64,000 nt of DNA, taken from positions 3,410,001 through 3,474,000 of the forward strand of contig NZ_CP011340.1 in NCBI RefSeq assembly GCF_001278075.1, read 5' to 3'. Of this stretch, positions 7,882-29,256 are shown piece by piece. Under the pieces are notes generated by a model. That model was not told the origin of the DNA and ran no database searches. It saw only the letters and a list, made by a program, of their open reading frames with translations. Both the position numbers and the translations under genes were made by a program. This DNA comes from Streptomyces pristinaespiralis (GTDB lineage Bacteria > Actinomycetota > Actinomycetes > Streptomycetales > Streptomycetaceae). Every line of letters starts with the position of its first letter. Positions within the stretch are counted from its first letter, which is position 1.

Positions 7882-8715
7882 TCAGCGGGCCAGGCTGCCA
7901 TCCGCGCCGGCGGCGTGAGCCGGCCGCTTCCCGATGACGACGGTGGCGTCCAGGTCCTCGCAGACGGCCACCTCCGCCTGGAGCCCGTGGCGGGTGAAGG
8001 CGGCGACGGTGGAAGGCGCCTGCCGCTCGCTGGTCTCGATGAGCAGGGAACCGCCCGGCGCCAGCCACCGGCCGGCCCGCGCGGTCACCCTCCGCTGGAT
8101 GCCGAGCCCGTCGGGGCCGCCGTCGAGGGCCACCAAGGGCTCGAAGTCGCGGGCCTCCGGCGGCAGCAGCCCGATCTCGCCGGTGGGCACGTACGGGGCG
8201 TTGGCGATGAGCACATCGACCCGGCCGGCCAGCCCGGCGGGCAGCGGGTCGTAGAGGTCGCCCTGGTGAACCCGGCCGCCGACGGGCCCGACGTTCCGCA
8301 GGGCGCACCGCACGGCGGCGGACTCGATGTCGGCGGCGTGCAGCTCACCGGCGCCGACGGCGCGCAGCACCGCCGCGCCCAGCGCTCCGGAACCGCAGCA
8401 GAGGTCGACGACGACAGGACGGGGCGGGGCCAGGGCGATCGCCCGGCCGACGAGGAACTCACTGCGGCGACGGGGCACGAAGACCCCTGGGTCGACGGCC
8501 ACGCGCACACCGCAGAACTCGGCCCAGCCGAGCACGTGCTCCAAGGGGAGGCCGGCGATCCGCCGCTCGACCATGGCGGCGAGTTCGTGGGGGTCGCGGG
8601 CCGCGGAGATCAGGAGATCCGCCTCGTCCTCCGCGAAGACGCAGCCCGCGGAGCGCAGCGCGGTGACGACGGAGGAGACGGAGGAAGGGGAGGGGTACAG
8701 CTCGGAGACCGACAT
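7882..8715 (-). CDS. HemK/PrmC-like protein N5-glutamine methyltransferase
   Basis: S-adenosylmethionine-dependent methyltransferase of the PrmC/HemK family (277 residues). The canonical members methylate the GGQ glutamine of release factors. The SAM motif is VDLCCGSGALG at 103-113. The catalytic tetrad normally written NPPY reads NAPY at 172-175. That change, together with the weak N-terminal region, marks a divergent paralogue rather than the prmC partner of prfA. The ATG at 8715 is followed by SVSELYPSPSSVSS and no neighbour suggests a substrate. Adjacent genes face other ways, so it is probably monocistronic. Confidence 0.8.
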   Translation of the reverse strand: MSVSELYPSPSSVSSVVTALRSAGCVFAEDEADLLISAARDPHELAAMVERRIAGLPLEHVLGWAEFCGVRVAVDPGVFVPRRRSEFLVGRAIALAPPRPVVVDLCCGSGALGAAVLRAVGAGELHAADIESAAVRCALRNVGPVGGRVHQGDLYDPLPAGLAGRVDVLIANAPYVPTGEIGLLPPEARDFEPLVALDGGPDGLGIQRRVTARAGRWLAPGGSLLIETSERQAPSTVAAFTRHGLQAEVAVCEDLDATVVIGKRPAHAAGADGSLAR

Positions 8716-9076
8716 GGAAGCCTTTCGGGGGCACCGACGGGGGCGCCCTCGCGGTCACCAGTGCCCGGTGGACCGTACGGCTGCGGAAGAGAGCGCCCAG
8801 CCTGCTACTGCGGGAATGGGTCTCACCTCCTCGGTCGTGGCACCGCTCCCGGACGACCGGGAGCACTGCTCGGGCGAGCCACCTTACCGGAAGGTGACGA
8901 GGGCAACACCCACCTCGCCGACTGCCGGATTCACAGGCGTCCGGCCTTCCTCGCTGCGGTTTCGAAGGGGCCGTGACCTTGTCACCCGGTGAGCCACAAA
9001 GCAGACATTCTCAGCCGTGCACCCACCGGCCCAAAACACGGAGCGATCAGCGTTATGCGCCCGTAAGCTCACAGAC
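8716..9076. other. intergenic region with one perfect hairpin
   Basis: This 361-base divergent gap separates the methyltransferase and aminotransferase genes. It holds a perfect 8-bp hairpin at 8845-8864 (GCTCCCGG, loop ACGA, CCGGGAGC) without a T-tract, and a lower-GC stretch at 8960-9060 where promoters for the aminotransferase are likely. I see no gene in it. Confidence 0.5.
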
Positions 9077-10288
9077 ATGCAGGTGATCCAGTCCACGAAG
9101 CTCGCAAACGTCTGTTACGAAATCCGGGGCCCGGTCCTCGAGGAGGCAATGCGGCTGGAGGCAGCAGGTCATCGCATCCTCAAGCTGAACACCGGCAACC
9201 CGGCCGCCTTCGGCTTCGAGTGCCCGCCGGAGATCCTCGAGGACATCCTCCGCAACCTCAGCACCGCCCATGGATACGGCGACGCCAAGGGGCTGCTGTC
9301 CGCGCGGCGCGCGGTGATGCAGCACTACCAGACCAAGGGCATCGAGCTCGGCGTCGAGGACATCTATCTGGGCAACGGCGTCTCCGAGCTGATCCAGATG
9401 TCGATGCAGGCGCTGCTCGACGACGGCGACGAGGTGCTCGTACCGGCGCCCGACTACCCGCTGTGGACGGCGTCGGTGTCGCTGTCCGGCGGCACGGCCG
9501 TGCACTACCGGTGCGACGAGCAGTCCGACTGGATGCCCGACCTGGCGGACATCGAGCGCAAGATCACCGACCGCACCAAGGCGATCGTGATCATCAACCC
9601 GAACAATCCGACGGGCGCCGTCTACGACGACGAGATGCTGCGCAGCCTCACCGAGATCGCCCGGCGCCACAACCTGGTCGTCTGCTCGGACGAGATCTAC
9701 GACCGGATCCTCTACGACGGCGCGACCCACACCCCCACCGCCGCCCTCGCCCCCGACCTGATGGTCCTCACCTTCAACGGGCTGTCCAAGAACTACCGGG
9801 TGGCCGGTTACCGGGCCGGCTGGATGGCGGTCTGCGGCCCCAAGGCGCACGCCTCCTCGTACATCGAGGGACTGACGATCCTCGCCAACATGCGGCTGTG
9901 CGCCAACATGCCCTCGCAGCACGCGGTGGCCACGGCGCTCGGCGGCCGGCAGTCGATCGAGGAGCTGGTGCTGCCGGGCGGACGGATCCTGGAGCAGCGG
10001 GACGTCGCGTACGACCTGCTGACGCAGATCCCCGGTGTGACCTGCGTGAAGCCGAAGGGGGCGCTGTATCTGTTCCCGCGGCTCGACCCCAAGGTCTACA
10101 AGATCAAGGACGACCGGCAGATGGTGCTGGACCTGCTGCGGGCCGAGAAGATCATGGTGGTGCACGGCACGGGCTTCAACTGGCCGGAGCCGGACCACTT
10201 CCGGATCGTGACCCTGCCGACGGCGAAGGACCTCGCGGACGCGGTGACCCGGATCGGCACGTTCCTGGACGGATACGGCCAGCCGTAG
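9077..10288 (+). CDS. pyridoxal-phosphate aminotransferase, class I/II (AlaA-like)
   Basis: 403-residue fold-type I aminotransferase. It has NTGNPAAFGF near the N-terminus, YLGNGVSELIQM, PDYPLWTASVSLSGG, IINPNNPTGAVYDDE, SDEIYDRI, and the PLP lysine K238 in SKNYRVAGYRAGW. These features match the AlaA/YfbQ type that makes alanine from pyruvate and glutamate, though other amino acceptors are possible. The ATG at 9077 gives the family start (MQVIQSTKLANVCYEIRG); the longer open frame upstream is not supported. It is followed after 101 bases by a small unknown gene. Confidence 0.9.
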   Translation: MQVIQSTKLANVCYEIRGPVLEEAMRLEAAGHRILKLNTGNPAAFGFECPPEILEDILRNLSTAHGYGDAKGLLSARRAVMQHYQTKGIELGVEDIYLGNGVSELIQMSMQALLDDGDEVLVPAPDYPLWTASVSLSGGTAVHYRCDEQSDWMPDLADIERKITDRTKAIVIINPNNPTGAVYDDEMLRSLTEIARRHNLVVCSDEIYDRILYDGATHTPTAALAPDLMVLTFNGLSKNYRVAGYRAGWMAVCGPKAHASSYIEGLTILANMRLCANMPSQHAVATALGGRQSIEELVLPGGRILEQRDVAYDLLTQIPGVTCVKPKGALYLFPRLDPKVYKIKDDRQMVLDLLRAEKIMVVHGTGFNWPEPDHFRIVTLPTAKDLADAVTRIGTFLDGYGQP

Positions 10289-14862: not shown

Positions 14863-15540
14863 ATGACTGCAGCCACGCCCGAAGTGACCGAGATGGACCC
14901 GCCCCCGGTGAAACCGAGGCTGCGCGGCTGGCTGCACGCAGGGATGTTCCCCGCCGTTGTGATCGCGGGAATCGTCCTCATCGCACTCGCGGACTCGACC
15001 AAGGCCAAGATCGCCTGCGGCATCTACGTGGTGACCGCATGCCTGCTCTTCGGCGTCAGCGCGCTCTACCACCGCGGCAACTGGGGCCCGCGGGCCACGG
15101 CCGTGCTGCGCCGGCTGGACCACGCGAACATCTTCCTGATCATCGCGGGCACCTACACGCCGCTCACGCTGCTCCTGCTCCCCGCGTCCACGGGCCGGGT
15201 GCTGCTGTGGGCGGTCTGGGCGGCCGCGGTGGCCGGGATCGCCTTCCGGGTGTTCTGGGTCGGCGCTCCCCGCTGGCTCTACACGCCCTGCTACATAGCG
15301 ATGGGCTGGGCCGCGGTGTTCTTCCTCCCCGACTTCCTGCGCGAGGGCGGCGTCGCCGTGCTCGTCCTGGTGATCGTCGGCGGGCTGCTCTACAGCGCGG
15401 GCGGGGTGATCTACGGGATCAAGCGACCGAACCCGTCGCCGCGCTGGTTCGGTTTCCACGAGGTGTTCCACTCCCTCACGCTCGCGGCGTTCATCGTCCA
15501 CTACGTGGGGATCTCGCTGGTGGCGTACCAGCACTCCTGA
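14863..15540 (+). CDS. hemolysin III family (PAQR-like) membrane protein
   Basis: 225-residue integral membrane protein with seven hydrophobic segments, belonging to the HlyIII/YqfA/PAQR group. It shows the family's conserved polar residues: ALYHRGNWGP, the Ser/Asp-bearing LDHANIFLIIAGTYTP, and the C-terminal HEVFHSLTLAAFIVHY, which supply the metal-binding histidines. In bacteria the role is poorly defined (membrane hydrolase or envelope homeostasis). The gene is divergent from pckG and has a perfect 22-bp-arm palindrome overlapping its ribosome-binding region, so it is probably tightly regulated. Confidence 0.9.
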   Translation: MTAATPEVTEMDPPPVKPRLRGWLHAGMFPAVVIAGIVLIALADSTKAKIACGIYVVTACLLFGVSALYHRGNWGPRATAVLRRLDHANIFLIIAGTYTPLTLLLLPASTGRVLLWAVWAAAVAGIAFRVFWVGAPRWLYTPCYIAMGWAAVFFLPDFLREGGVAVLVLVIVGGLLYSAGGVIYGIKRPNPSPRWFGFHEVFHSLTLAAFIVHYVGISLVAYQHS

Positions 15541-17853: not shown

Positions 17854-19608
17854 ATGTCGAACACCTCACGACGCGGCCTTCTCGCCGTCCTCGCCGCCTC
17901 CGCGGCCTCCGTCCCGCTCGGCTCCTTGACCGCGGCCCCGGCCCACGCCGCAAAGTCCGCACCGGCCGTAGGGCCGTTCGCGGCACCGGCCGGGCCGGGC
18001 ACCGCCCTCTCGTCGGTGACACAGGCCCCGCTGGACGCCTCGCACTTCACCCGGCTGGCGCTGCACACCCCGCTCACCGCCACCGTGCTGCCGGGGACGC
18101 CGGTACGTACCGAGATCACCTCCGGCGGCGAACGCGTCGCCCTGCTGACGCACGGCGCGCGGACCGTCGTACTGCCCGGCCCGGAAAGGACGTTCACCGA
18201 GAACAAGAAGCCCTACGCGGACGACTTCGGGCGCACCCTGCCGGACCTGACACTGCCTGAGGCGGAACGCCGCTACTGGGGCAGCACACCGGGCGGCGGC
18301 AGCTGGTCCACACTCGGGCCCGAAGAGACCGACTACTCGGTGGCGCCAGGCACCGGCATCATCACCCTCACCACCGACCACGCGAGCCGCCACGCCAGCG
18401 TGCGCGACGACGGCCTCACCGACGTGGACGTGCGTTCCGTGGCCCGGTTCGACAAGGTGCCCACCGGCCAGGCCTGTTCGTACGCCCTGTCCTTCGGCTA
18501 CCAGGACACGCACAACAGCTACCGGGCCAGGCTGTCGTTCCTCACCTCCGGCGCCGTGCAGCTGCGGGTCGAGAAGGAGGTCGACGACCAGGTCACCCAG
18601 CTGACCACCGCGCTCACCCTCGCCACGGACGTACCCGCCGGGACCGACTGGACGATCCGCGTACGCCGCGAAGGCACCCTGATCCGGGCCAAGGCCTGGC
18701 GGTCGGACCTCGCCGAGCCGGCGGGCTGGGCCGCCGAGGCCACCGACGCCACGTTCGGCGCCGGCCGGGTGGGCCTGCGGGCGCTGGCCAACGACGGCTG
18801 CACCAACCTGCCCGTCAAGCTGATCGTCAGCCGCTTCCAGGTGGACGCCGCCACCTGGGAGGTGCCGCCCCGCGTCACGCACCGGCACTGGGTGCGGGTG
18901 CTGCCGCAGCCGTTCGACGGGAACTGGACGCCGGAGCTGGAGCAGGTGATACGCGGCTGGGCCGGCTCCACGGCCCCCGACGTCCTCGCCCACGCCGCCA
19001 TGTTCCTCGCCGGCGCCCCGGCGGTGACCAGCGGGGCGGGACCGGCGGAGGGCAAGCAGGTGCTGGGCGAGGCCGGTTACGGCTACCTCGACCCGCGGGG
19101 CGACCGCTACGAAGGCGCCGACTTCCACGAGTACATGAACCTCGGCTGGACCTTCCCCGACGGCACCTGGACCGGGCCGTCCGCCAAGCAGGCCGGCAAC
19201 CTCGACTGCTCGGGCTACACGCGCATGGTCTACGGCTACCACATGGGCGTTCCGACGGCCGCGGGCGAGGACACGTCGGGCACCCGGCTCCCGCGCAGGT
19301 CCCGCGACATGGCGGACCACGCGCCCGGGGTGCGCGTCGACCGGACCGACGGCACCGCGCCGCCCGCCGCGACGCAGCTGCAACCCGGTGACCTGCTGCT
19401 GTTCAACGCCGACTCGGGCGACGACGGCGTGAGCGCCACGGTCGACCACGTCGGCATCTACCTCGGCGAGGACGCGGCCGGCGGGCGCCGTTTCCTGTCC
19501 AGCCGCAAGACGGTCGACGGCCCCACGATGTCCGACCTGGGCGGCGCGTCGCTGCTGGACGGCACGGGCACGTACGCCAGGACGCTGCACACCGTGCACC
19601 GCATCTGA
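17854..19608 (+). CDS. secreted LamG-like/NlpC-P60 cell-wall hydrolase
   Basis: 584-residue exported protein with a twin-arginine-like signal (TSRRGLLAVLAAS, cleavage near PAHAA). Residues about 120-345 form a beta-rich module of the LamG/concanavalin or keto-disaccharide-hydrolase type (DDFGRTLPD, VARFDKVPTGQACSYALSFGY, WTIRVRREGTLIRAKAW). Residues about 380-584 are an NlpC/P60 papain-like peptidase with catalytic Cys452 in NLDCSGY and His532 in VDHVGIYLG, as expected for D,L-endopeptidases that cut peptidoglycan stems. The sugar-binding-like module may target it to wall polysaccharide. A hairpin at 19651-19675 follows. It stands alone; the next gene is convergent. Confidence 0.85.
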   Translation: MSNTSRRGLLAVLAASAASVPLGSLTAAPAHAAKSAPAVGPFAAPAGPGTALSSVTQAPLDASHFTRLALHTPLTATVLPGTPVRTEITSGGERVALLTHGARTVVLPGPERTFTENKKPYADDFGRTLPDLTLPEAERRYWGSTPGGGSWSTLGPEETDYSVAPGTGIITLTTDHASRHASVRDDGLTDVDVRSVARFDKVPTGQACSYALSFGYQDTHNSYRARLSFLTSGAVQLRVEKEVDDQVTQLTTALTLATDVPAGTDWTIRVRREGTLIRAKAWRSDLAEPAGWAAEATDATFGAGRVGLRALANDGCTNLPVKLIVSRFQVDAATWEVPPRVTHRHWVRVLPQPFDGNWTPELEQVIRGWAGSTAPDVLAHAAMFLAGAPAVTSGAGPAEGKQVLGEAGYGYLDPRGDRYEGADFHEYMNLGWTFPDGTWTGPSAKQAGNLDCSGYTRMVYGYHMGVPTAAGEDTSGTRLPRRSRDMADHAPGVRVDRTDGTAPPAATQLQPGDLLLFNADSGDDGVSATVDHVGIYLGEDAAGGRRFLSSRKTVDGPTMSDLGGASLLDGTGTYARTLHTVHRI

Positions 19609-19899: not shown

Positions 19900-22344
19900 T
19901 CACCGCCTCCGCAGATCCCCCTTCCCGCACGCCACGCCGTCGCGGTTCGGGTCGAGCCGCAGCGGGTCGTCCCCGCCGTTGACCTTCAGACGGCCGTAGT
20001 CGTGGGCGGCAAGCCACTCGCAGCGCGCCGCCGTCGTCCGCTTCACCGCCTTCGGGAAGGTGGTCGGGACGCAGACGCCGGCGCTGCCGTAGTGCCGGTC
20101 GCAGCCCGCGACCTGCGGGTCCACCGCCACCGAACTCCGCTTCTTCAACGGCTTCTTCGGCGCCCGGGCCAGGTCGTCCGCGAAGTCGTGGACATGGGCG
20201 GAAGGATGGCCCGCCGCCGCCCGCGCCATCGCCGGCGGGCCGCCGAGATGCACCCACCGGGCCACCGAGGGCACGCCGTTCGCGTCGACGGCGAAGAGCA
20301 TGTACCAGCCCGGCGGCGCCAGGTTCGGGTTGCTGGTGACGTTCAGGTCGACGTTGTTCCCGTCGACCGTCATCGGCAGGTCCACGAACCGCTGGTTGGG
20401 GTCGGACGAGTGCGTCACCGCCGCCGGGCGGATCAGCTCCGCCTTCGCGATCGGCCGGTCGACGGTGATCCGCTGGGTGTCGCCGTACGTCCACTGTCCG
20501 TCGATCACCGAAGTGATCTGCGGGCGGGCGCCCTTGAGCAGGTACGGCGGCGTGTAGAGCGACACGTTGTGGTTGTAGGTGCCGTTGCCGGGGTTGTCGC
20601 CGACCGACATCACGCGACCGTCGGGCAGCAGGAAGGAGGAGGAGTGGTAGCCGCGCGGGACCGGGTCCGTGGCGAGCCCCGCCTCGTAGGTGTCGGTCAC
20701 CGGGTCGAAGAACGACGCCTCGTACACCGGGTCGGCCCGGTCGTGGAGGGCGCCGCCGGTCTCGAGGACCTTGCCGTCGGGCAGCAGCACGGCGGAGACG
20801 TACATCTTGCCCTCCGCGCCCGTCTGCGGGCGGCGGCCGAGACCCTGGTCGACCTCTCCCTGCGGCAGCAGCGGGCCGTGCACGTACGCCGGGTTCGGCT
20901 CCTTCAGGTCGATGATGTCGGTGTAGCGGTTGGCCACGGGGTTGGTCTCGTTGTTGCCTCCGCCGATCGTCAGGACCCGCTGGTCCTGCGCGGGCGGCAA
21001 CAGCACGCTCGCCGACTCGTCACGCTCGTCCTTGGCCTGCAGACCGGGGACGTCGGTGATGGTGTTGGCCTCGTAGTCGTAGATCGAGGCGCCGGTGCCG
21101 GGCGTGCCGTTGCCGAAGGTGTGGCTGCCGGAGTAGAAGAGGCGGCCGTCCTGCATGAGGATCATCGACGGGTACAGGCCCCAGTACGACCAGGTCTGGT
21201 TGACCTCGTTCATCGGGAGCCACTTGTTCTGGGCGGCGGAGAACTTCTCCGCGGTCACGTTGCCGGTCGAGTCCTCCTTCAGGCCGCCGAAGGAGATGAC
21301 GTCACCGTTGCCGAGGACGGTCGCCGAGGGGTACCAGTGGCCGCCGTTCATGTCGTTGGTGCGCGTGTAGGTCTCGGTCGCCGGGTCGAAGACGAACGAG
21401 TCCTTCAGGCCCTGGTAGCCGATCGTGCCGTCCGCGGAGGGGTAGCCCTTGTTGCCGGACATGATCAGGATCTTGCCGTCCTGGAGCTGCACATGGCCCG
21501 CGCAGAACATGTCGACGGGCGTGGGGATCGTCCGGAAGGTGCCGTCGGCCGGGTCGTACACCGCCGAGGTGAAGGTGCCCGCCTCGAACATGGCCTCGTC
21601 GTTGCCCGAGCCGGCGATGACGAGGACCTTGCCGTTGTGCATCACCACCGAGTGCATGGAGCGCACCGGGTTGTGCACCGGAAGGACGTCCCAGCGGCCC
21701 TTGAGGCACTCCTCGGGCGTGCCCGTGCATGTGGGCTCCGGAACCGGGACCGACACCTCCTCCATCACGTAGTCGTCGGTGGTGACAGAGCCCGTGCCGT
21801 ACACGGACACGCCCCACGCGATCCGGTCGGTGCCCGCGGGGACGGCGGGCGTGCGGACCTCGGCGCGCCGGTAACCGGCGCTCGTCTCGAGGGTCTTCAG
21901 GTCCGTCCAGTACTGCCATCCGGCCGTGGTGTCGTGCCGGAAGAGCGTGACGGAGGCGTCCGGAGTGGTCGATTTGTACCAGAGGGACAGGTCGTACTGC
22001 CGGTCCGGCGTCACCTGCGGCGCGCAGGCGGTGGTCTCGGTGATCAGGGCCTTGCGGTCGCCGTCGACACGGCGGGTCAGCGAGACCTTCATCGCCTTGG
22101 TACCGGAGTGGGCGTCGGCGACCGTCTCGAACGTGAAGTCGTTGTCGCCCCAGCCGGACCTGGACCAGCAGGCGGGCATGTCACCCGTGCCCGCCGTCTC
22201 GAAGCCCGGGTTGGAGATCAGGTTGGGCGGACCGGCCTGGGCCGTCTGCGGTACGGACATCAGCAGCGCCGTGGTCATGGCGCCGACGGCGAGCAGGGCG
22301 GTCCTGCGTCTGGGTCGGCGGGGGATCCGGAGCGGTGGCGGCAT
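19900..22344 (-). CDS. secreted copper radical oxidase (galactose/glyoxal oxidase family) with Excalibur-like tail
   Basis: 814-residue exported oxidase that would convert an alcohol or aldehyde to the next oxidation state with release of H2O2. Order: signal peptide (cleavage near TAQA-GPP); carbohydrate-binding-like jelly roll, about 40-200; Kelch propeller, about 215-600; C-terminal DUF1929 Ig-like domain, about 605-700; Cys-rich tail. The copper radical site is complete: C281 (MFCAGH) and Y338 (GHWYPSAT) for the Cys-Tyr crosslink, W388 above it, axial Y566 with H567 (RGYHSSS), and H645 (THSSDPNQR). The tail ends in DPNRDGVACG, an Excalibur-type Ca2+ motif. It is the last gene of a four-gene glycosyltransferase operon, 48 bases after its neighbour. 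Relative: GlxA, which works with the synthase CslA at hyphal tips. Confidence 0.9.
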   Translation of the reverse strand: MPPPLRIPRRPRRRTALLAVGAMTTALLMSVPQTAQAGPPNLISNPGFETAGTGDMPACWSRSGWGDNDFTFETVADAHSGTKAMKVSLTRRVDGDRKALITETTACAPQVTPDRQYDLSLWYKSTTPDASVTLFRHDTTAGWQYWTDLKTLETSAGYRRAEVRTPAVPAGTDRIAWGVSVYGTGSVTTDDYVMEEVSVPVPEPTCTGTPEECLKGRWDVLPVHNPVRSMHSVVMHNGKVLVIAGSGNDEAMFEAGTFTSAVYDPADGTFRTIPTPVDMFCAGHVQLQDGKILIMSGNKGYPSADGTIGYQGLKDSFVFDPATETYTRTNDMNGGHWYPSATVLGNGDVISFGGLKEDSTGNVTAEKFSAAQNKWLPMNEVNQTWSYWGLYPSMILMQDGRLFYSGSHTFGNGTPGTGASIYDYEANTITDVPGLQAKDERDESASVLLPPAQDQRVLTIGGGNNETNPVANRYTDIIDLKEPNPAYVHGPLLPQGEVDQGLGRRPQTGAEGKMYVSAVLLPDGKVLETGGALHDRADPVYEASFFDPVTDTYEAGLATDPVPRGYHSSSFLLPDGRVMSVGDNPGNGTYNHNVSLYTPPYLLKGARPQITSVIDGQWTYGDTQRITVDRPIAKAELIRPAAVTHSSDPNQRFVDLPMTVDGNNVDLNVTSNPNLAPPGWYMLFAVDANGVPSVARWVHLGGPPAMARAAAGHPSAHVHDFADDLARAPKKPLKKRSSVAVDPQVAGCDRHYGSAGVCVPTTFPKAVKRTTAARCEWLAAHDYGRLKVNGGDDPLRLDPNRDGVACGKGDLRRR

Positions 22345-22392
22345 GAGCGGGTTCCCTTCGTGCGGCTCTCTTCCGGGTGACGTCTTCGGGGT

Positions 22393-23601
22393 TCAGGAAC
22401 TGCTGCCGACCCGCGCGTCCGGCAGGGCGGCGGGCGGCGCGCTCTTCGCACGCGGCAGGTAGACAAGCGCCTCCGTCGCGGCGAAGCGCACGACGAACGT
22501 GGTCAGCAGCGCGAGCGCGGTCGCCGGCAGCACCGCCATGTCCAGCCAGGACACGAACAGCGCGATCAGCGGGATCCGCAGCAGCAGATCGGCGTTGGCC
22601 AGCAGCGCGAAGCGTCCGGCGCGGTCCGCCCAGTGCCGGTGGCGTCTGCGGTCACGGAACAGCAGCACCTCGATGAGCAGGAAGTTCCACGCCACACCGA
22701 ACTGGTTGGCCACGATCTCGGCCGGAAGGTAGTGCATGCCGGCGCCGGTCAGCAGGTGCAGTGCGAGAAGGTTCGGCACGAAGCCGGTCAGCCCGATCAG
22801 ACCGAAGGCGACCATCCGGGCCATCGCGGACGCGGTGCGCAGCCCGGTGAGATGGCCGAGGAAACGCATGCCCTCCTTCGCCGTCGACTTCGACTCGCCG
22901 GCGAACCGGTCCTGGAAGACGAACGGCACCTCCGCGACCGTCTCCGGGCGGCAGCGCACCGCCAGTTCCAGCAGGATCTTGTAGCCGAGCGGCTTCAGCG
23001 CGTCGGCCCTCACCACACTGCGCCGGATCGCGAAGAAGCCGCTCATCGGATCGCTGACGCCGCGCAGCCGCCGCGGGAACAGTGCCTTGGTCAGCCAGGT
23101 CGCGCCGCGCGAGACGGCGACGCGGTAACCGCCGGCGAGGCCCTCGCGGCTGCCTCCGCTGATGTAGCGGCTGGCGACGACGAGGTCGGCGCCCGCGCGC
23201 TCCCCCGCCGCGACCAGGTCCGGTACCAGGGCGGGGGGATGCTGGAGATCGGCGTCCATGACGACGATCCAGTCGGAGCCCGCCCTCCGCATGCCTTCGA
23301 CCACGGCCCCGCCGAGCCCGCCGTCCGGGGTGTCGCGGTGCAGCACGCCCACCGGGAAGGGGCAGTCCTGCGCGGCGCTTCGGATCACGTCCGGCGTGTC
23401 GTCGGTGGAGTCGTCGACGAACAGCACCTCGCAGGGCAGCCGGGACGGCACCGAGTCGGTGAGCCTGCGCAGCAGTTCACGGATGTTGCCGGACTCGTTG
23501 TAGGTGGGGACGACGATGGTGACGGCGCCGGGCTCGACGACCTGGGCGGCACTCAGCTCCGGATCGCCGAGTTCCTCGGCGCCCGTACGGGGGGTGGTCA
23601 C
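22393..23601 (-). CDS. GT2 polyprenyl-phosphate sugar synthase fused to GtrA-type membrane domain
   Basis: 402 residues. The N-terminal domain is a dolichol-phosphate-mannose-synthase-like GT2 (VTIVVPTYNESGNIRELL, LFVDDSTDDTPDVI, VVMDADLQHPP) that would transfer a sugar from a nucleotide sugar to a polyprenyl phosphate. The C-terminal part, from about 260, has four hydrophobic helices of the GtrA family (ARMVAFGLIGLTGFVPN, NQFGVAWNFLLIEVLLFRDR), thought to help flip lipid-linked sugars. It starts with GTG overlapping the upstream stop by four bases. The product is the natural donor for the GT39 enzyme encoded just upstream. Confidence 0.9.
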   Translation of the reverse strand: MTTPRTGAEELGDPELSAAQVVEPGAVTIVVPTYNESGNIRELLRRLTDSVPSRLPCEVLFVDDSTDDTPDVIRSAAQDCPFPVGVLHRDTPDGGLGGAVVEGMRRAGSDWIVVMDADLQHPPALVPDLVAAGERAGADLVVASRYISGGSREGLAGGYRVAVSRGATWLTKALFPRRLRGVSDPMSGFFAIRRSVVRADALKPLGYKILLELAVRCRPETVAEVPFVFQDRFAGESKSTAKEGMRFLGHLTGLRTASAMARMVAFGLIGLTGFVPNLLALHLLTGAGMHYLPAEIVANQFGVAWNFLLIEVLLFRDRRRHRHWADRAGRFALLANADLLLRIPLIALFVSWLDMAVLPATALALLTTFVVRFAATEALVYLPRAKSAPPAALPDARVGSSS

Positions 23602-25274
23602 AGCTCGCCTCCAGCGATCCTGCGGATCTCGATACGGTCCTCGCCCGCGCCGAAGACGGCGACCGGCGTCGAATGCTCGAGGGCCGACTTGACGTTGGGC
23701 AGGTCGACGGCGTCACGCCGTACGGTCGGTGACGACACGACGTAGTCGAGGTCGCGCCAGCCGCGCGGCATCGTCTTCGCGACCGCCGGGTCGAGGTCCG
23801 CCTTGTAGAACCAGATCGCCCCGGTGCCGGGCTCGAAACCGTCGTGGACGAGATCCAGCCAGAGGGCGTCGTCGACGAGCACGCGGGTGTTCGCCGGGTC
23901 GTCGACCTCGTGTCGCATCCAGGCGGCCGCGGCACGGTAGGGGCCGTTGGCGTCGACGGTGAGCGCGGCCCGGTTGCCGTCGTACCAGCGGGGAGCGACG
24001 TACCCGGCCGCCGTCACGGCCAGCACGGCGGCCGCGGTGAGGCGTACGGCGCGCGCCCGGGCGGCCGCGGTGGACAGGCCCGGCCGGACGGGGGCGGCAC
24101 CCCGGTTGCCACGGCGCAGCACCGCGTGGGCCACGCTGGCCGCCGCGGCCGCCAGGACCAGCGCGAGGAACGGCAGCGCCTGGATCACGTACATCGCGGG
24201 GAGGTAGCCCGAAGGCCGCATGGCGACGACCGCGAGGATCGCCACCACCAGCGCCGGGCCGGCGAGCGCCCGTGCCGTGACCGACCAGCGGACCGTGACG
24301 AGCAGCAGCGCGGCGCCGGCCAGCCCGCCGACGGGCAGCACGGTGTCGTAGTACAGCCACGACGTGAGGACCCCGTGGGACCCGGTGTCCTCGTCGAGGA
24401 TGAAGCCGGAACCGGGCCGGCTCATCTGGTACGCGATGCCGTCGATGAGCGACACATGGCCGGCTCCGGGGAACAGCTCGCTGTTCAGCAGCGCGTACAG
24501 CGGGTACGACAGGCCGATCAGCGCGCAGGCCGTGATCGCTCCGGTGACCGCGAACTTACGGGTGTCCCGGTGGCTGTGCCGCCACATGGTCACCAGCAGC
24601 GCGGGCAGCACGACCAGCATGGTCTCCTTGGTCAGCACGGAGACGGCGGCGGTGAGCCCTGCGGCGAAGTGGTGCCACAGATGGCGGTCGGGCGACGCGG
24701 CCAGGCAGAACGCCAGCAGCATCCACATGACGGCGATGTTGTCGAGGAAGATCTCGCGCTGCAGCACGACGGAGAGCGGCGAGAGACCGAAGAGGGCCAT
24801 CGCCAGGCCCGCCGCCCACCGCGGCAGGAACAGCCGGCGCGCCAGCACGTACAGCAGCACCGCGCACGCGGCGCTCACCGCCAGCATCGCGAACCGCATG
24901 GAGGCGACGGTCATCGTCTCTGGAGCGATCAGCGAGGGGATCCAGGTCAGGAACGCTATCTGGATCCAGCCGAGCGGCGGATGGTCGTACCAGTACGTGT
25001 AGTGGGCGAGCCCTTCGCCCTGCTGGACCGCCCACGCCTGCGCGAGGTAGGTGCCCTCGTCGTCGCTGAGCGTCGGGAAGTGGGTGATGTTCCAGCCCTG
25101 GACGAGCAGGATCGCGAGCAACAGCGCCCCGCACAGCAGCAGGTCGGGCCGCGAACCGCGGAACCGCACGACCGGGCGGACGCGCACGGGCGCGGTGGTG
25201 GTCACCGTCGCCGCGACGGGTGCGGCGGGAACCGGCTCGGTGGCCTCGGGAGCGGGAGGCAGGGTCGTCGTCAC
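23598..25274 (-). CDS. GT39/ArnT-type polyprenyl-phosphate-sugar dependent glycosyltransferase
   Basis: 558-residue GT-C membrane enzyme with about 11 hydrophobic segments. The first outer loop has the catalytic acidic motif LSDDEGTYLAQAW, and YWYDHPPLGWIQIAFL, FGLSPLSVVLQREIFLDN and TKETMLVVLPALL are typical of the PMT/ArnT group. Such enzymes take sugars from polyprenyl phosphate on the outer face of the membrane. The C-terminal soluble domain (about 440-558) contains RVLVDDALWLDLV. The GTG start at 25274 is favoured by GAGAGGA upstream and by its four-base overlap with the preceding gene; a longer frame to 25343 is a shadow. It is coupled at both ends to GT2 genes. Confidence 0.9.
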   Translation of the reverse strand: MTTTLPPAPEATEPVPAAPVAATVTTTAPVRVRPVVRFRGSRPDLLLCGALLLAILLVQGWNITHFPTLSDDEGTYLAQAWAVQQGEGLAHYTYWYDHPPLGWIQIAFLTWIPSLIAPETMTVASMRFAMLAVSAACAVLLYVLARRLFLPRWAAGLAMALFGLSPLSVVLQREIFLDNIAVMWMLLAFCLAASPDRHLWHHFAAGLTAAVSVLTKETMLVVLPALLVTMWRHSHRDTRKFAVTGAITACALIGLSYPLYALLNSELFPGAGHVSLIDGIAYQMSRPGSGFILDEDTGSHGVLTSWLYYDTVLPVGGLAGAALLLVTVRWSVTARALAGPALVVAILAVVAMRPSGYLPAMYVIQALPFLALVLAAAAASVAHAVLRRGNRGAAPVRPGLSTAAARARAVRLTAAAVLAVTAAGYVAPRWYDGNRAALTVDANGPYRAAAAWMRHEVDDPANTRVLVDDALWLDLVHDGFEPGTGAIWFYKADLDPAVAKTMPRGWRDLDYVVSSPTVRRDAVDLPNVKSALEHSTPVAVFGAGEDRIEIRRIAGGEL

Positions 25275-26542
25275 CGGCGGGCGTCCTCTCTGGTGTCCGT
25301 CACCTCGGTGAGGTGCGCGCCGACATGGCTGGTCAGTTCCCACTCGTTACGGCCGCGCTGCTCCCGCCAGACGGCGCGCACGGCGGCGCCGGCGAGCAGG
25401 ACCTGGTAGAAGGGGCCGCCGACGATGAGCTTCAGGTAGTGCACGAAACGGACCTTCAGCCCGTACTGCTTGCCGAAGTCGTGCAGTCCGACGATCTCGA
25501 AGACGAAGGTGACCATGGCCGTGATCAGCGGCAGGAAGGTCACGATGGCGATCCCCACCGGGACGTCGAGGAAGAGCGCGACCGCGACGTTGACCGGGAT
25601 GACCACGCCCGAGTACGCCTGGAGGAACGGCGTCATCAGGGTGTAGCGGGCCAGCATGCGCTGTCCGCGCCCGGGCAGCTGCTTCCAGTCCTTCTTCCGG
25701 TAGACCTGAAGGAACCCCTGGTTCCAGCGGGTGCGCTGCTTGAGCAGGCTCATCAGGGTGCCCGGGGTCTCCTCCCGGGTGACCATGTCGCTGTCGTACG
25801 CGACGACGACCCTCTTGCCGACGGACGACAGCCGCACGCCCAGGTCGCAGTCCTCCGCGAGGCAGTCGGGGTCCCAGCCGCCGGCCTCGCGCAGCACCGG
25901 GGTACGGACGAAGACGGTGTTGCCGCCGAGCGGGATGAAGCCCTTCTGCGCGTGCAGGTGGAGCCTGCTGCGGAACCAGAAGAAGTACTCCAGGCAGTTG
26001 CGGAGGCTGTACCAGCTGGAGTGGAAGTTGATCAGCTGCACCCCGCCCTGCACCACGTCGGCGCCGGTGGAGGTGAAGGCGTGGTCGACGTGCGCCAGCA
26101 GCTCGGGGTGGACCTGGTCCTCGGCGTCGAACACCCCGACGATGTCGCCGCGGCAGTGCGGCAGGGCGGTGTTGAGCGCCTTGGGCTTGTTCTTGGTCTC
26201 GTGCGTGTCGGTGACGACCCGTACCCGGACGGGATCGCGGGCGGCGGCGCGTTCGGCGACCGCGGCGGTCTCCGGGTCGTCGTGTCCGACGATCACGATG
26301 ATCTCGAAGTTGGAGTGGCTGGATTCCAGCAGCCGCTCGATGGTGTGCTCCAGCACCGCCTGTTCGTGGCGGGCGGGCAGGAGCAGCGAGAAGGAGAGAC
26401 CGACCCCTCCGTGGGGCCGGTCGAACCGTGTCGCCGCGAGAGTCTCCGGCGTGCGCCAGGCGTGCATCTGCCACCACAGCGTGAACGCCGCCATCCAGAA
26501 CAGCGCCACGGAAATGGCAGCAACGAACAGCGAAATGAGCAT
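25271..26542 (-). CDS. processive GT2 glycosyltransferase (CslA-like, membrane)
   Basis: 423-residue family 2 glycosyltransferase with one N-terminal membrane helix, a GT-A domain and about four C-terminal helices, the layout of bacterial cellulose/hyaluronan-type synthases. The catalytic motifs are complete: LLLPARHEQ, VFDAEDQVHPELL (DxD-like), LAEDCDLGVRL (TED/EDC Asp) and QRTRWNQG (QxxRW). The start at 26542 has GGGGGG upstream; an alternative GTG lies six codons further up. As the first gene of the oxidase operon, it is likely to make the glycan that the rest of the operon decorates. The polymer is unknown. Confidence 0.9.
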   Translation of the reverse strand: MLISLFVAAISVALFWMAAFTLWWQMHAWRTPETLAATRFDRPHGGVGLSFSLLLPARHEQAVLEHTIERLLESSHSNFEIIVIVGHDDPETAAVAERAAARDPVRVRVVTDTHETKNKPKALNTALPHCRGDIVGVFDAEDQVHPELLAHVDHAFTSTGADVVQGGVQLINFHSSWYSLRNCLEYFFWFRSRLHLHAQKGFIPLGGNTVFVRTPVLREAGGWDPDCLAEDCDLGVRLSSVGKRVVVAYDSDMVTREETPGTLMSLLKQRTRWNQGFLQVYRKKDWKQLPGRGQRMLARYTLMTPFLQAYSGVVIPVNVAVALFLDVPVGIAIVTFLPLITAMVTFVFEIVGLHDFGKQYGLKVRFVHYLKLIVGGPFYQVLLAGAAVRAVWREQRGRNEWELTSHVGAHLTEVTDTREDARR

Positions 26543-26710
26543 GAATGGCCCCCCTGCCACTGTGCCGAGGCAGGACCCCCCTGGCCGTCGGCACGAACTT
26601 CCCCCACGCGCGTCACTCCCCAGTACGCGCGCCGGATCAGCTGCGTTCAGGACAATAGAGGCGGAGGATTTCGTTCCGGAGTCTGACGCCCAAATTCAGC
26701 TTTTCTCGTA

Positions 26711-28729
26711 TCAGTCGGTGAGTTTCCGGGCAAGTTCTGTTGCGTCTGTGGTCGGTGAATCGCACACGAATCCGCGGCAGACGTACGCGGCCGAACTGCC
26801 GTTCACCAGGGGCCGGTCCCGCAGCAACGGGAACTCGTCGCTGTCCGGCTCCCCCACCGCGACCGCCGCACCCGGCGCCGTGCCCATCAGCGCCGTCAGG
26901 TGCAGCTCCCGCGTCGCCGGGTCGCCCGGCCGGCCGACGACCGCCACCTCGCGCGGCCCGTCGAGCAGCGCCTCCGCAGCCGCGAGGCCCCAGCCGATGA
27001 ACCGAGGGGCACGCGGCCCGAGCCCCTTGACGACGCCCAGGGCGCCTTCCGCCGCGGTGCGGTGGGCCTCGGAGCCGGTGTGCGCCGAGTACAGCAGCAG
27101 CGCGGCGGCCGCCGCCGACCAGCCGGAGGGAGCGGCGTTGTCCGTGGGGTCCTGCGGGCGGCGGATCAGCGGCTCGGCGTCGTGCGCGGTGTCGTACAGC
27201 GCGCAGCCCTCCCCGGTGAACCGGTCCATGACCATGTCCAGAAGGAAGCCCGCGAATTCCAGCCAGCTGCCCTCGCCGCCGACCGCCGCGAGCGCCAGGA
27301 AGCCCTCCGCGACGTCCGCGTAGTCCTCCAGCACACCGGCGTTCGCGCCGGGCCTGCCGTCCTTGGACGTGCGGTGCAGGCGCACGCCACCGGCCTCGAA
27401 GTCCATGTGCACCCGCACCAGCAGGTCCGCGGCCTCCGTGGCGCGCTCGACGAGGTCCGGCCTGCCGAAGAAGGCGCCGGTCTCGGCGAGTGCGGCGATC
27501 GCGAGCCCGTTCCAGGCGGCCACGACCTTGTCGTCGCGGCCCGGGCGCGGCCGCTCCTCGCGGGCCGCGAGCAGCCGCTGCCTGAGGTCCGCGTCGGCCT
27601 CGCCGTGCGGGAGCCGGAGGACGGACGAGCCCTCCTCGAAGGTGCCCTCCTCGGTCACCGCGAAGAGCTCGGCCGCCCGTGCCCCGTCCTCCTCGCCGAG
27701 CACCTCGCGCAGCTGCGCGGGCGTCCACACGTAGAACGCGCCCTCGGCGTGACCGCCGTCCGCCGTGTCGCTGTCCGCGTCGAGCGCGGAGGCGAAGCCG
27801 CCCTCGGAGGTGCGCAGCTCGCGCACCAGGAAGTCAGCGGTCTCCAGCGCCACCCTCCTGGCCAGATCGCTGCCGGTGGCACGCCACAGGTGGGCGTACA
27901 CCCGGCACAGCAGGGCGTTGTCGTAGAGCATCTTCTCGAAGTGCGGGACGACCCACTCGCGGTCCACCGAGTAGCGGGCGAACCCGCCGCCGAGCTGGTC
28001 GTAGATGCCGCCGCGGGCCATCGCCTCGCAGGTGTCGGCGGCCATCTGCAGGGCGCCCTCGGCGCCGGTGCGCGCGTGGTGCCGCAGCAGGAACTCCAGG
28101 ACCATCGACGGCGGGAACTTCGGCGCGCCGCCGAAGCCGCCGTGCCGCTCGTCGTAGTCCCGGGTCAGCCCGAGCAGCGCCTGTGCCAGCTCCTCCTCGC
28201 CGGGCACCCCGTCGCCGCCGACCACGAGCGAGCGCGCGGCCAGGTCGGAGGCGATCCGCTGCGCGACCTCGCCGACCTCGTCACGGCGGCCGGTCCAGGC
28301 GTCGCTGACGCCTTCCAGCACCTGACGGAAGGAGGGCATGCCGTGCCGGGGCGCGGGCGGGAAGTAGGTCCCGAAGTAGAACGGCTCCCCGTCGGCCGTC
28401 ATCCACACGGACATCGGCCAGCCGCCCTGCCCGGTCGCGGCCTGCACGGCCTCCATGTAGACGGCGTCCACATCGGGCCGCTCCTCACGGTCGACCTTGA
28501 TGTTGACGAAGTGCTCGTTCATGTACGCGGCGGTCTCCGCGTCCTCGAAACTCTCGTGCGCGAGCACATGGCACCAGTGGCAGCTGCTGTATCCGACGCT
28601 CAGGAACACCGGAACATCGCGCCGCCTCGCCTCTTCGAAGGCGGCGGGCTCCCACTGCCACCAGTCGACGGGGTTGTCGGCGTGCTGGAGGAGATACGGG
28701 GACGTGGCCTGCGCAAGTCGGTTCGCCAT
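26711..28729 (-). CDS. YyaL-type thioredoxin domain protein (DUF255 / AGE-like)
   Basis: 672-residue cytoplasmic protein of the YyaL/spermatogenesis-associated 20 family. An N-terminal thioredoxin-like domain carries CHWC at 50-53 ([12 protein letters not shown]) after the signature [20 protein letters not shown]. An (alpha/alpha) barrel of the N-acylglucosamine 2-epimerase type follows ([45 protein letters not shown]). The biochemical role of the family is not established. The ATG at 28729 has AAGGA eight bases upstream. An in-frame GTG six codons earlier is possible. Confidence 0.93.
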
Positions 28730-29256
28730 ACCTCCATCCTTGCGCACCCGCCCCGGCCCCCGCCCGGCGCCACGGGGGCATCGTTCGTGCCGCGCGCCCG
28801 ATCAGCGCCGCGTGGCGCGCGTGACGAAGGCGGCGCTGGCGTCCCGGCCGGGCGGAGGGCGAGCAGGTTCGTGTCTCGTCGCGCATCTCGCGGACGGGGG
28901 CGTAGGGGACGGCCGCCCGGTTCGTCGCCGGGCCGGCCGCCGACGCGATCACCACGGACGCTTCCGCGGACGGGACTTCCGCCTGCGGCCGGCTCCGGCC
29001 GCAGGCGGGGCGGTCTGCTCGGAATGGGACCAACTCGCCCCGGTTGAACCGGAACAGCGGTGCCGCGACGTGTCGAGCGGGCGGCGACGGGCGTCCCGCT
29101 GGTCCTCACGTACGTCCTCGACCCGGCGGCCCGCGTCCACCGGGACGGGACGTGTTCACCGGCGTGGTGAAGGCCGTGGCGCCCTTCGCCGTCGAGGTCG
29201 ACCTCTGCGCGCTCCGACCGCGCATCCACGAGCCCGCCCGCCCGGCCCGTGCCGGG
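28730..29256. other. gene-poor stretch with traces of a decayed gene
   Basis: This 527-base gap holds no intact gene that I can support. Hairpin-rich GC sequence occupies 28780-29000 (for example, GCCTGCGGCCGG facing CCGGCCGCAGGC at about 28981-29006). A protein-like segment is present at 29090-29255 and listed separately. No promoter stands out for the YyaL gene. Confidence 0.5.
29090..29255 (+). pseudogene. possible remnant of an S1-like RNA-binding protein
   Basis: In frame from 29149, the sequence reads DVFTGVVKAVAPFAVEVDL, close to the G-x-V-x-x-V-xPFG-x-FVDL core of S1 domains, and continues to a stop only inside the convergent gene. Just upstream, in another frame, VPLVLTYVLDPAARVHRDG also looks coding. 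Two coding-like fragments in adjacent frames with no start or ribosome-binding site suggest a frameshifted relic. Chance resemblance in GC-rich DNA cannot be excluded. Confidence 0.3.

What the first reader, a model, noticed from the sequence alone, without database searches (positions are those of the whole stretch)
19900..26542. Operon joining a copper radical oxidase to three glycosyltransferases
Four leftward genes run together: processive GT2, GT39, GT2-GtrA (GTGA overlaps between these three) and, 48 bases on, a secreted oxidase with a complete Cys-Tyr copper site. The enzymatic logic is coherent: GT2-GtrA makes and flips a polyprenyl-linked sugar, GT39 uses it outside, the CslA-like GT2 makes the backbone and the oxidase modifies it. 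It parallels cslA-glxA at hyphal tips but has extra lipid-sugar steps, so it may make a distinct oxidised glycan.
Basis: partly seen in the sequence, partly recalled or inferred. Interest (0 to 1): 0.75.

Follow-up and report, generated by a model that had tools for sequence, protein, structure and literature searches.

The report
Second copper-oxidase glycan operon in Streptomyces
Four linked genes appear to build, decorate and oxidise a sugar polymer outside the cell, as a second system separate from the known cellulose-making pair of these bacteria, and the same gene set recurs in distant relatives together with a copper-delivery gene.

Summary
In detail: GT2, GT39, GT2-GtrA and a copper radical oxidase (CRO) lie head to tail at 26542-19900, with GTGA overlaps and a 48-base gap. 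It is not cslA-glxA: the genome has a canonical cslA-glxA-GH6 locus 2 Mb away, and this CRO fails the GlxA model (397 of 800 bits), lacks GlxA's barrel domain and is 31% identical to GlxA; the GT2 is 21% identical to CslA. The set behaves as a unit: of 150 Streptomyces genomes, all 54 with the CRO have GT2 and GT39, 49 also GT2-GtrA, 94 have none. It survives rearrangement and block loss, and recurs in Frankiaceae (8 of 8 fetched loci) as GtrA-CRO-SCO-GT2-GT39 with a copper chaperone; three of those genomes, checked, also hold a separate cslA-glxA. In 11 of 17 CRO-free loci tested, GT2(-GT39) lies beside GH8, GH6 or GH5 (cellulase-type) genes. In other Streptomycetaceae genera the CRO accompanies GT2-GT39 in only 4 of 9 loci. 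Best reading: a second actinomycete machine that makes a beta-glycan, adds a lipid-delivered sugar outside, and oxidises the product. The copper-site residues are complete; sugars, acceptor and oxidation are inferred. No paper seen describes it.

The parts
25271..26542 (-). GT2, membrane glycosyltransferase (423 aa from ATG; 429 aa from an upstream GTG at 26560); D139-A-E-D142, E230-D231, Q269-RTR-W273 motifs (423-aa numbering); N-terminal and C-terminal hydrophobic segments
23598..25274 (-). GT39 / PMT-type polyprenyl-phosphate-sugar-dependent glycosyltransferase, about 10 hydrophobic segments; GTGA overlap with GT2
22393..23601 (-). GT2-GtrA fusion, like Pyrococcus dolichol-phosphate mannose synthase (5mlz, E 7.7e-57); probable polyprenyl-phosphate hexose synthase; GTGA overlap with GT39
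19900..22344 (-). Copper radical oxidase (814 aa), probably secreted, kelch propeller plus E-set domain
21730..22233 (-). CRO N-terminal beta-rich domain (residues 38-205), most of it modelled at pLDDT 77-93, perhaps carbohydrate-binding (inferred; no Pfam hit, not covered by the fold comparison)
21502..21504 (-). Codon of C281, the cysteine of the Cys-Tyr cofactor (GlxA C121)
21331..21336 (-). Codons of W337-Y338: cross-linked Tyr and the GlxA-type second-shell Trp (GlxA W288)
20644..20649 (-). Codons of Y566-H567, copper ligands
20410..20412 (-). Codon of H645, copper ligand in the E-set domain
19915..20106 (-). CRO C-terminal four-Cys domain (residues 747-810) with a D-x-N-x-D-G-x-x-C loop, Excalibur-like (label recalled; no Pfam match)
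26640..26710 (-). Block between the DUF255 gene and GT2, conserved among orthologues and more divergent here; probable promoter/operator of the operon

Best explanation
A four-gene extracytoplasmic glycan machine, parallel to and separate from CslA-GlxA. The GT2 is a membrane synthase that makes and exports a beta-linked chain, most likely of the beta-1,4-glucan kind. The GT2-GtrA protein loads a hexose on polyprenyl phosphate and its GtrA part helps it across. GT39 transfers that hexose outside to the chain. The secreted CRO, kept at the glycan by its N-terminal domain, oxidises a primary hydroxyl of the product to an aldehyde with release of H2O2, which would allow cross-linking. In Frankiaceae a dedicated Sco protein supplies the copper; in Streptomyces the general Sco presumably does. 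Shown here: gene order, domains, complete active-site residues, conservation as a unit, link with Sco, separateness from cslA-glxA. Inferred: every catalytic step, the sugars, the acceptor, secretion.
Against: No GH5, GH6 or GH8 relative was found by tblastn in the CRO-bearing Streptomyces loci, nor in the CRO-free loci L164, L165, L167, L170, L171 and L216, so the GH link holds for 11 of 17 CRO-free loci tested (L203 and L204 were not tested for it), and the genome has no GH8; the beta-1,4 inference rests on relatives of 42-61% identity. In other Streptomycetaceae genera only 4 of 9 fetched GT2-GT39 loci have the CRO within the stretch (L163, L166, L168, L169); in three of the other five a propeller-lectin protein takes its place, so oxidation is not needed for whatever GT2-GT39 makes. 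Five of 54 genomes lack GtrA by the search (one, G028, has a GtrA piece at a contig end). Frankiaceae genomes G503 and G634 have, besides the full cluster, a second SCO-GT2-GT39-GtrA set without CRO in the stretch, and a second CRO at a contig end. Co-occurrence of linked genes is partly trivial. The GT2 model was too poor to use (pLDDT 54).
Confidence: 0.56

Rival explanations
1. The CRO is a small-aldehyde oxidase of the GlxA/AA5_1 kind whose purpose is H2O2 or a structural role at the synthase; the glycan is not its substrate.
For: It has the GlxA-type Trp directly before the cross-linked Tyr, and the FgrAldOx paper says GlxA shares the activity profile of fungal aldehyde oxidases (passage); GlxA is needed for CslA activity in vitro (abstract and first part of the results). 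A third CRO of this genome lies beside a DyP peroxidase gene.
Against: It lacks the inserted barrel domain of GlxA, and a simple hydropathy scan finds no membrane anchor, so a GlxA-like scaffold role is less likely; it carries an extra N-terminal domain, and Frankia versions have a PA14 domain (P0244), which suggests glycan binding; no peroxidase gene lies in the operon.
Confidence: 0.2
2. GT2-GtrA and GT39 O-glycosylate a secreted protein, perhaps the CRO itself, rather than a polysaccharide.
For: GT39 belongs to the PMT families; the neighbouring extracytoplasmic protein varies (CRO, propeller-lectin, membrane-anchored repeat protein) while GT2-GT39 stay together.
Against: The constant partner of GT39 is a GT2 with processive-synthase motifs, and many relatives lie beside cellulase-type GH genes; other families have GT2-GT39 without the CRO.
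Confidence: 0.13
3. The GT2 is not a polymerase; the three transferases build a lipid-linked or wall-linked oligosaccharide. (This may hold together with the first rival; the odds of the rivals are not exclusive.)
For: The nearest solved structures by sequence include the small membrane GT2 6yv7 as well as cellulose synthase, both with weak scores.
Against: Invariant QxxRW and D-x-x-D motifs; GH8, GH6 or GH5 neighbours in relatives.
Confidence: 0.15
4. The CRO gene merely shares a promoter with unrelated glycosyltransferase genes.
For: GT2-GT39 occur without the CRO in other families and in 5 of 9 loci of other Streptomycetaceae genera, and the genes are physically linked.
Against: The set persists through several gene orders and in two families, with SCO between CRO and GT2; no genome of the 150 passed the threshold for the CRO without GT2 and GT39.
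Confidence: 0.07

Closest known systems
CslA-GlxA-CslZ cellulose synthase system of Streptomyces (PMC11022532, PMC4736821, PMC3543389)
   Same: GT2 synthase plus copper radical oxidase in one operon; GlxA-type copper site; cellulase-type GH genes linked in relatives; Sco linked to the oxidase
   Different: Different CRO clade (31% identity), no GlxA barrel domain, extra N- and C-terminal domains; GT2 of 423 aa not CslA; adds GT39 and DPMS-like GT2-GtrA; both systems coexist in this genome and in 3 of 3 Frankiaceae genomes checked
Bcs cellulose synthase operons (BcsA-BcsB-BcsZ)
   Same: Membrane GT2 with QxxRW; GH8 (the family of BcsZ, recalled) next to relatives of this GT2
   Different: Far below the BcsA model cut-off; no PilZ domain match in the GT2; no BcsB gene in the operon
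PgaC/IcaA (and, recalled, MatAB) poly-N-acetylglucosamine synthases
   Same: Similar size and architecture of the GT2 (recalled); second-best NCBIfam match
   Different: 75.8 bits against a cut-off of 422; no deacetylase in the operon; CRO and GT39 instead
Polyprenyl-phosphate sugar pathways (DPMS/ArnC type synthase plus GT39/ArnT type transferase)
   Same: GT2-GtrA with GT39 in one operon, the usual pair for extracytoplasmic sugar transfer (recalled)
   Different: Coupled here to a polymer-type GT2 and a CRO

Membership tests
Copper radical oxidase (AA5-like) | Cys-Tyr cofactor residues and Tyr, His, His ligands at aligned positions | tested here: met
   C281, Y338, Y566, H567, H645 aligned with GlxA, invariant in 63 rows
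Copper radical oxidase (AA5-like) | Kelch propeller followed by galactose-oxidase E-set domain | tested here: met
Copper radical oxidase (AA5-like) | Formed cross-link, bound copper, alcohol or aldehyde oxidation | not testable with these tools
   Needs purified protein
GlxA (NF052501 equivalog) | Score at or above the curated cut-off of 800 bits | tested here: not met
   397 bits; the genome's true GlxA scores 1135
GlxA (NF052501 equivalog) | Inserted GlxA beta-barrel domain PF21110 | tested here: not met
   Absent, present in the own GlxA; alignment jumps at residue 309
GlxA (NF052501 equivalog) | N-terminal transmembrane anchor | tested here: inconclusive
   A simple hydropathy scan finds one in GlxA (18-36) and none in this CRO, but its signal-like N-terminus was not tested with a dedicated program
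CslA / BcsA cellulose synthase | D,D,ED and QxxRW motifs of processive GT2 | tested here: met
   Invariant in 59 rows
CslA / BcsA cellulose synthase | Score over the BcsA model cut-off, or orthology to CslA | tested here: not met
   36.6 bits against 699; 21% identity to own CslA
CslA / BcsA cellulose synthase | Makes cellulose | not testable with these tools
   Only indirect: GH8/GH6/GH5 neighbours in 11 of 17 CRO-free relatives tested
GT39 / PMT | PMT family domains over cut-off, multi-span membrane protein | tested here: met
   PF02366 41.6 bits against 22.7, PF13231 38.1 against 26.1; about 10 hydrophobic segments
DPMS-like polyprenyl-phosphate sugar synthase | GT2 catalytic domain fused to GtrA/DPMS membrane domain, homologous to a solved DPMS | tested here: met
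   PF00535 and PF04138; 5mlz E 7.7e-57
DPMS-like polyprenyl-phosphate sugar synthase | Uses GDP-mannose and polyprenyl phosphate | not testable with these tools
   No assay

The most novel reading that the evidence does not exclude
Filamentous actinomycetes carry a second, ancient CRO-glycan machine beside CslA-GlxA: a beta-1,4-type backbone is made by a GT2, decorated outside the membrane with a lipid-delivered sugar by GT39, and that side sugar is then oxidised by a dedicated, Sco-fed copper radical oxidase to give an aldehyde-bearing, cross-linkable polysaccharide; the terminal secreted partner is exchangeable (CRO or propeller-lectin).
Probability: 0.36. Interest if true: 0.82.

Novelty: new variant of a known kind. 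Interest (0 to 1): 0.62.

Why it matters
The physiological substrate of bacterial copper radical oxidases is an open question; GlxA work rests on one locus. A second, separately inherited locus that pairs a CRO with glycan synthases, and with its own Sco in Frankiaceae, gives an independent test of whether CROs oxidise nascent glycans. About a third of the sampled Streptomyces genomes have it (54 of 150), so morphology and pellet studies built on CslA-GlxA and MatAB alone may miss a surface polymer. It could also yield a naturally aldehyde-bearing polysaccharide.

Tried and rejected
Rejected: that this is the genome's only CRO-synthase locus; that it is a copy of cslA-glxA; that the published Frankia 'cslA-glxA next to sco' cluster is this operon. 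That last idea looked right, but one search showed that three Frankiaceae genomes hold a true cslA-glxA-GH6 locus (with a SCO gene nearby in 2 of 3) and, separately, the GtrA-CRO-SCO-GT2-GT39 locus.

Led nowhere: AlphaFold of the GT2 (mean pLDDT 54.4), not used for a fold search. Family of the CRO N-terminal domain: the fold comparison covered residues 209-702 only, so it stays open. No sigma-70-like promoter (0 found) and terminator-like sites not above shuffles (3 against 2.1, sd 1.5); no Rfam match in the window. The phylum sample (296 genomes) gave matches of 36-41% in only four genomes outside Streptomyces; their context was not examined. Third CRO at 4.881 Mb not pursued. Context of the Micromonosporaceae, Nocardia and Kitasatospora members of the CRO clade not examined.

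Weak points of counts: the presence thresholds are mine (lowest identity kept: CRO 60%, GT2 64%, GT39 51%, GtrA 57%) and the handle lists were copied by hand. Dropped as not orthologous: GT2 matches of 42-45% and GT39 matches of 32-33% in six genomes (the distant paralogue), CRO fragments in G124 and G043, and the weaker CRO matches (GlxA-like and others). G141 (split), G028 and G138 (partial) count as CRO-positive; G018's GtrA is in two pieces. The 107 loci are 100 loci (the latter kept the best 80 of 325) plus 7 chosen later; a few genomes are in it twice (for example L026 and L047), 8 loci are cut by contig ends, 4 lack GtrA, 1 (L032) is a 38-42% paralogue. In the GT2 tree the L166 row was lost (only 5 residues extracted). 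Of 10 Frankiaceae genomes with this CRO, 8 were fetched; in G643 and G686 CRO and GT2 lie on different contigs.
Full report
What is there. On the minus strand of the window, four genes run together: GT2 (25271-26542), GT39 (23598-25274), GT2-GtrA (22393-23601) and a copper radical oxidase, CRO (19900-22344). Upstream lies a DUF255 gene (26711-28747, same strand), downstream an NlpC/P60 gene on the other strand (17854-19608). The genome is a Streptomyces (inferred: G030, of the same genus, has a contig that matches Streptomyces sp. ISL-10 in length and place).

Is it the known locus? No. A search of the whole 8.53 Mb genome for the E-set domain found three CROs. The one near 5.465 Mb is canonical: CslA (L004 10256-12199), GlxA (8307-10259; NF052501 at 1135 bits, cut-off 800) and a GH6 gene. 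The one near 4.881 Mb lies beside a DyP-type peroxidase gene whose product ends in a B-lectin-like part (32.1 bits against a cut-off of 32.4). The window CRO scores 397 bits on the GlxA model, is 31% identical to the own GlxA, and its GT2 is 21% identical to CslA. It lacks the GlxA barrel domain PF21110; a simple hydropathy scan found no membrane anchor. It has an N-terminal beta-rich domain and a C-terminal four-Cys domain instead. In a tree it groups with CROs of Frankiaceae, Micromonosporaceae, Nocardia and Kitasatospora, apart from GlxA (96/96 support; the GlxA and third-CRO branches are long, so their own places are unsure).

Is it a unit? In the same 150 Streptomyces genomes, 54 have the CRO, 55 the GT2, 55 the GT39 and 50 the GT2-GtrA; all 54 CRO genomes have GT2 and GT39, 49 have all four, 94 have none (thresholds and dropped rows under Tried and rejected). 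The exceptions are G073 (GT2 and GT39 at contig ends, no CRO), G136 (a lone GtrA) and five CRO genomes without a GtrA match, one of which (G028) has a GtrA piece at a contig end. Fisher tests give P between 1e-31 and 1e-42, but linked genes in related genomes are not independent, so the stronger evidence is rearrangement. Of 107 loci, 85 have DUF255-GT2-GT39-GtrA-CRO, 6 have the genes split into divergent halves (GT2 with or without GtrA, against GT39-CRO), 2 of another genus have CRO first, 4 lack GtrA, 1 is a decayed remnant (L044), 8 are cut by contig ends, and 1 (L032) is a different CRO. Of the 96 genomes without a CRO by this count I looked at 19 at the DUF255 gene: none has a GT2, GT39 or GtrA match after it; the HlyIII gene (window 14863-15540) follows in 15 of 19, and in one (G080, L181) 43 residues of the CRO C-terminus remain. 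G124 (L044) and G043 (L136) hold other remnants. So the set sits at a fixed place in Streptomyces and has been lost as a block more than once.

Other genera of the family. GT2 was found in 14 of 61 genomes of a family sample. Of ten loci fetched, one is again Streptomyces with the full operon (L172); of the nine from other genera four have the CRO (L163, L166, L168, L169) and five do not within the stretch (L164, L165, L167, L170, L171). The CRO is thus not a constant companion there.

Beyond the family. In a phylum sample (296 genomes), close CROs were found only in Streptomyces, and four other genomes gave 36-41%. In a class sample of 246 genomes, CROs of 49% identity or more occur in 9 Streptomyces and in 10 genomes of one other family, f85. 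This family is Frankiaceae (inferred from a 98% match of its CRO to Frankia torreyi, P0244). I fetched 8 of the 10; in 8 of 8 the order is GtrA-CRO-SCO-GT2-GT39, all on one strand (L211-L215, L223-L225; in L224 the contig ends after GT2). SCO is the SCO1/SenC copper chaperone; it was identified by Pfam in L203, L204 and L168 and by similarity to the L168 protein in the others. Genomes G503 and G634 also have a second CRO at a contig end and, on another contig, a SCO-GT2-GT39-GtrA set without CRO in the stretch (L203, L204). SCO also lies between CRO and GT2 in Streptomycetaceae loci L166 and L168. Genome G562 keeps GtrA-GT2-GT39 but has neither SCO there nor any CRO match. Three of these Frankiaceae genomes were checked for the canonical system: 3 of 3 hold a true cslA-glxA-GH6 locus elsewhere, with a SCO gene near it in 2 of 3 (L220, L221), which fits the published remark on Frankia (PMC4736821, passages). 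So the two systems run in parallel in two families.

What may the GT2 make? Where GT2-GT39 occurs in families other than these two (GT2 50-61%, GT39 37-42% identity; 5 loci, L199-L202 and L205, none with a CRO match in the genome), a GH8 gene (4) or a GH5 gene (1) is a neighbour. A distant paralogue in Streptomyces (GT2 42-44%, GT39 28-30%; L126-L131, with the GT39 of L131 on another contig, L132) has GH6 and GH5 genes in 6 of 6 loci. GH8 is the family of BcsZ (recalled) and GH6 that of CslZ (the GH6 gene), so a beta-1,4-type chain is the best guess. Against this, no such GH gene was found in CRO-bearing Streptomyces loci or in six other CRO-free loci, and the genome has no GH8.

A swap of partners. 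In three loci of other Streptomycetaceae genera (L164, L165, L167) the CRO is absent and a protein of about 1355 aa, with a weak PQQ-like propeller match (below its cut-off), ASH/Hydin Ig-like domains and legume-lectin-like domains, precedes GT2-GT39. Their GT2s fall inside the CRO-linked GT2s in the tree, with modest support (85/94). In the distant Streptomyces paralogue the third gene encodes a membrane-anchored protein that looks repetitive and Ig-like (judged from its sequence; no Pfam match above its cut-off). So GT2-GT39 is the core and the extracytoplasmic partner varies.

How it works (inference). The GT2 polymerises and exports a chain; the DPMS-like GT2-GtrA makes a polyprenyl-phosphate hexose (nearest solved relative is Pyrococcus dolichol-phosphate mannose synthase, 5mlz; the organism is recalled); GT39 uses it outside; the CRO oxidises a primary hydroxyl. 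Each enzymatic step follows from family knowledge; none was shown here.

Regulation. Between DUF255 and GT2 a block is conserved in many orthologues (GAAACA, then TTTATC, then TTCACA, TCCCCC and TA-N2-CTCT); the printed rows were judged by eye, and the window itself and its closest relatives diverge from it. It fits no sigma-70 pattern. It is probably a promoter or operator.

Literature. Seen: section 5 and passages of PMC3543389; abstract, the first part of the results and the discussion of PMC11022532; passages of PMC4736821, PMC13094651, PMC5133688, PMC9194555 and PMC9760358. Liman and others reported one GlxA-like protein in all but three of 28 Streptomyces genomes, with extra copies as cslA-glxA duplicates; the present counts show a different, common second CRO. 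Searches listed no paper that, by title, abstract start or the passages seen, describes this operon; they cover only open-licence papers, and most listed papers were not opened. Frankia papers count a glxA, a bcsA and a celA1, which fits the canonical locus better; this was not proved.

Verdict. It is a new variant of a known kind, with good comparative support for the unit and none yet for the chemistry.

Noticed in passing
G000:C1 near 4,881,400 (L005 6481-10352): A third CRO of the genome lies beside a gene for a DyP-type peroxidase with a B-lectin-like part (just under the Pfam cut-off); an oxidase-peroxidase pair of unknown role. A second genome (G128, L032) has a CRO with a weak DyP match (26%) 1 kb away.
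   Followed up: partly
window 26640-26710; loci L026-L125: Conserved promoter-like block upstream of the operon with motifs GAAACA, TTTATC, TTCACA-N2-TCCCCC-N-TA-N2-CTCT in many orthologues; no known sigma consensus recognised.
   Followed up: partly
L164 4481-8539, L165 10588-14661, L167 9963-14033: Protein of about 1355 aa (weak PQQ-like propeller, Ig-like and legume-lectin-like domains) that takes the place of the CRO next to GT2-GT39.
   Followed up: partly
L126-L132 (six Streptomyces genomes): Distant GT2-GT39 paralogue with a membrane-anchored repeat protein, near GH6 and GH5 genes and (Pfam in L128) an S8 peptidase gene; looks like yet another glycan locus.
   Followed up: partly
L044 7849-8827, L136 8823-10333, L181 1507-1635: Decayed remnants of the operon in three genomes, two of them (L044, L181) seen at the usual site after DUF255; evidence of repeated block loss.
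   Followed up: partly
L202 12419-15862: In another family GT2-GT39 is followed by DUF4397, GH8, a sortase and a GtrA-like gene, as if the product were tied to the wall.
   Followed up: no
L213 5018-7876 and P0244: The Frankia relative of the CRO carries a PA14 domain (precomputed Pfam of P0244); the Streptomyces one has an N-terminal beta-rich domain without Pfam match.
   Followed up: no
L146 1375-2916: A kelch/E-set protein of another actinobacterial lineage that aligns with the CRO but lacks the Cys and Tyr of the cofactor, with what appears to be a hydrophobic C-terminal extension.
   Followed up: no
window 17854-19608: NlpC/P60 gene convergent with the CRO; no match to it in any of the 100 orthologous loci (at E 1e-10, stretches of limited length).
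   Followed up: no
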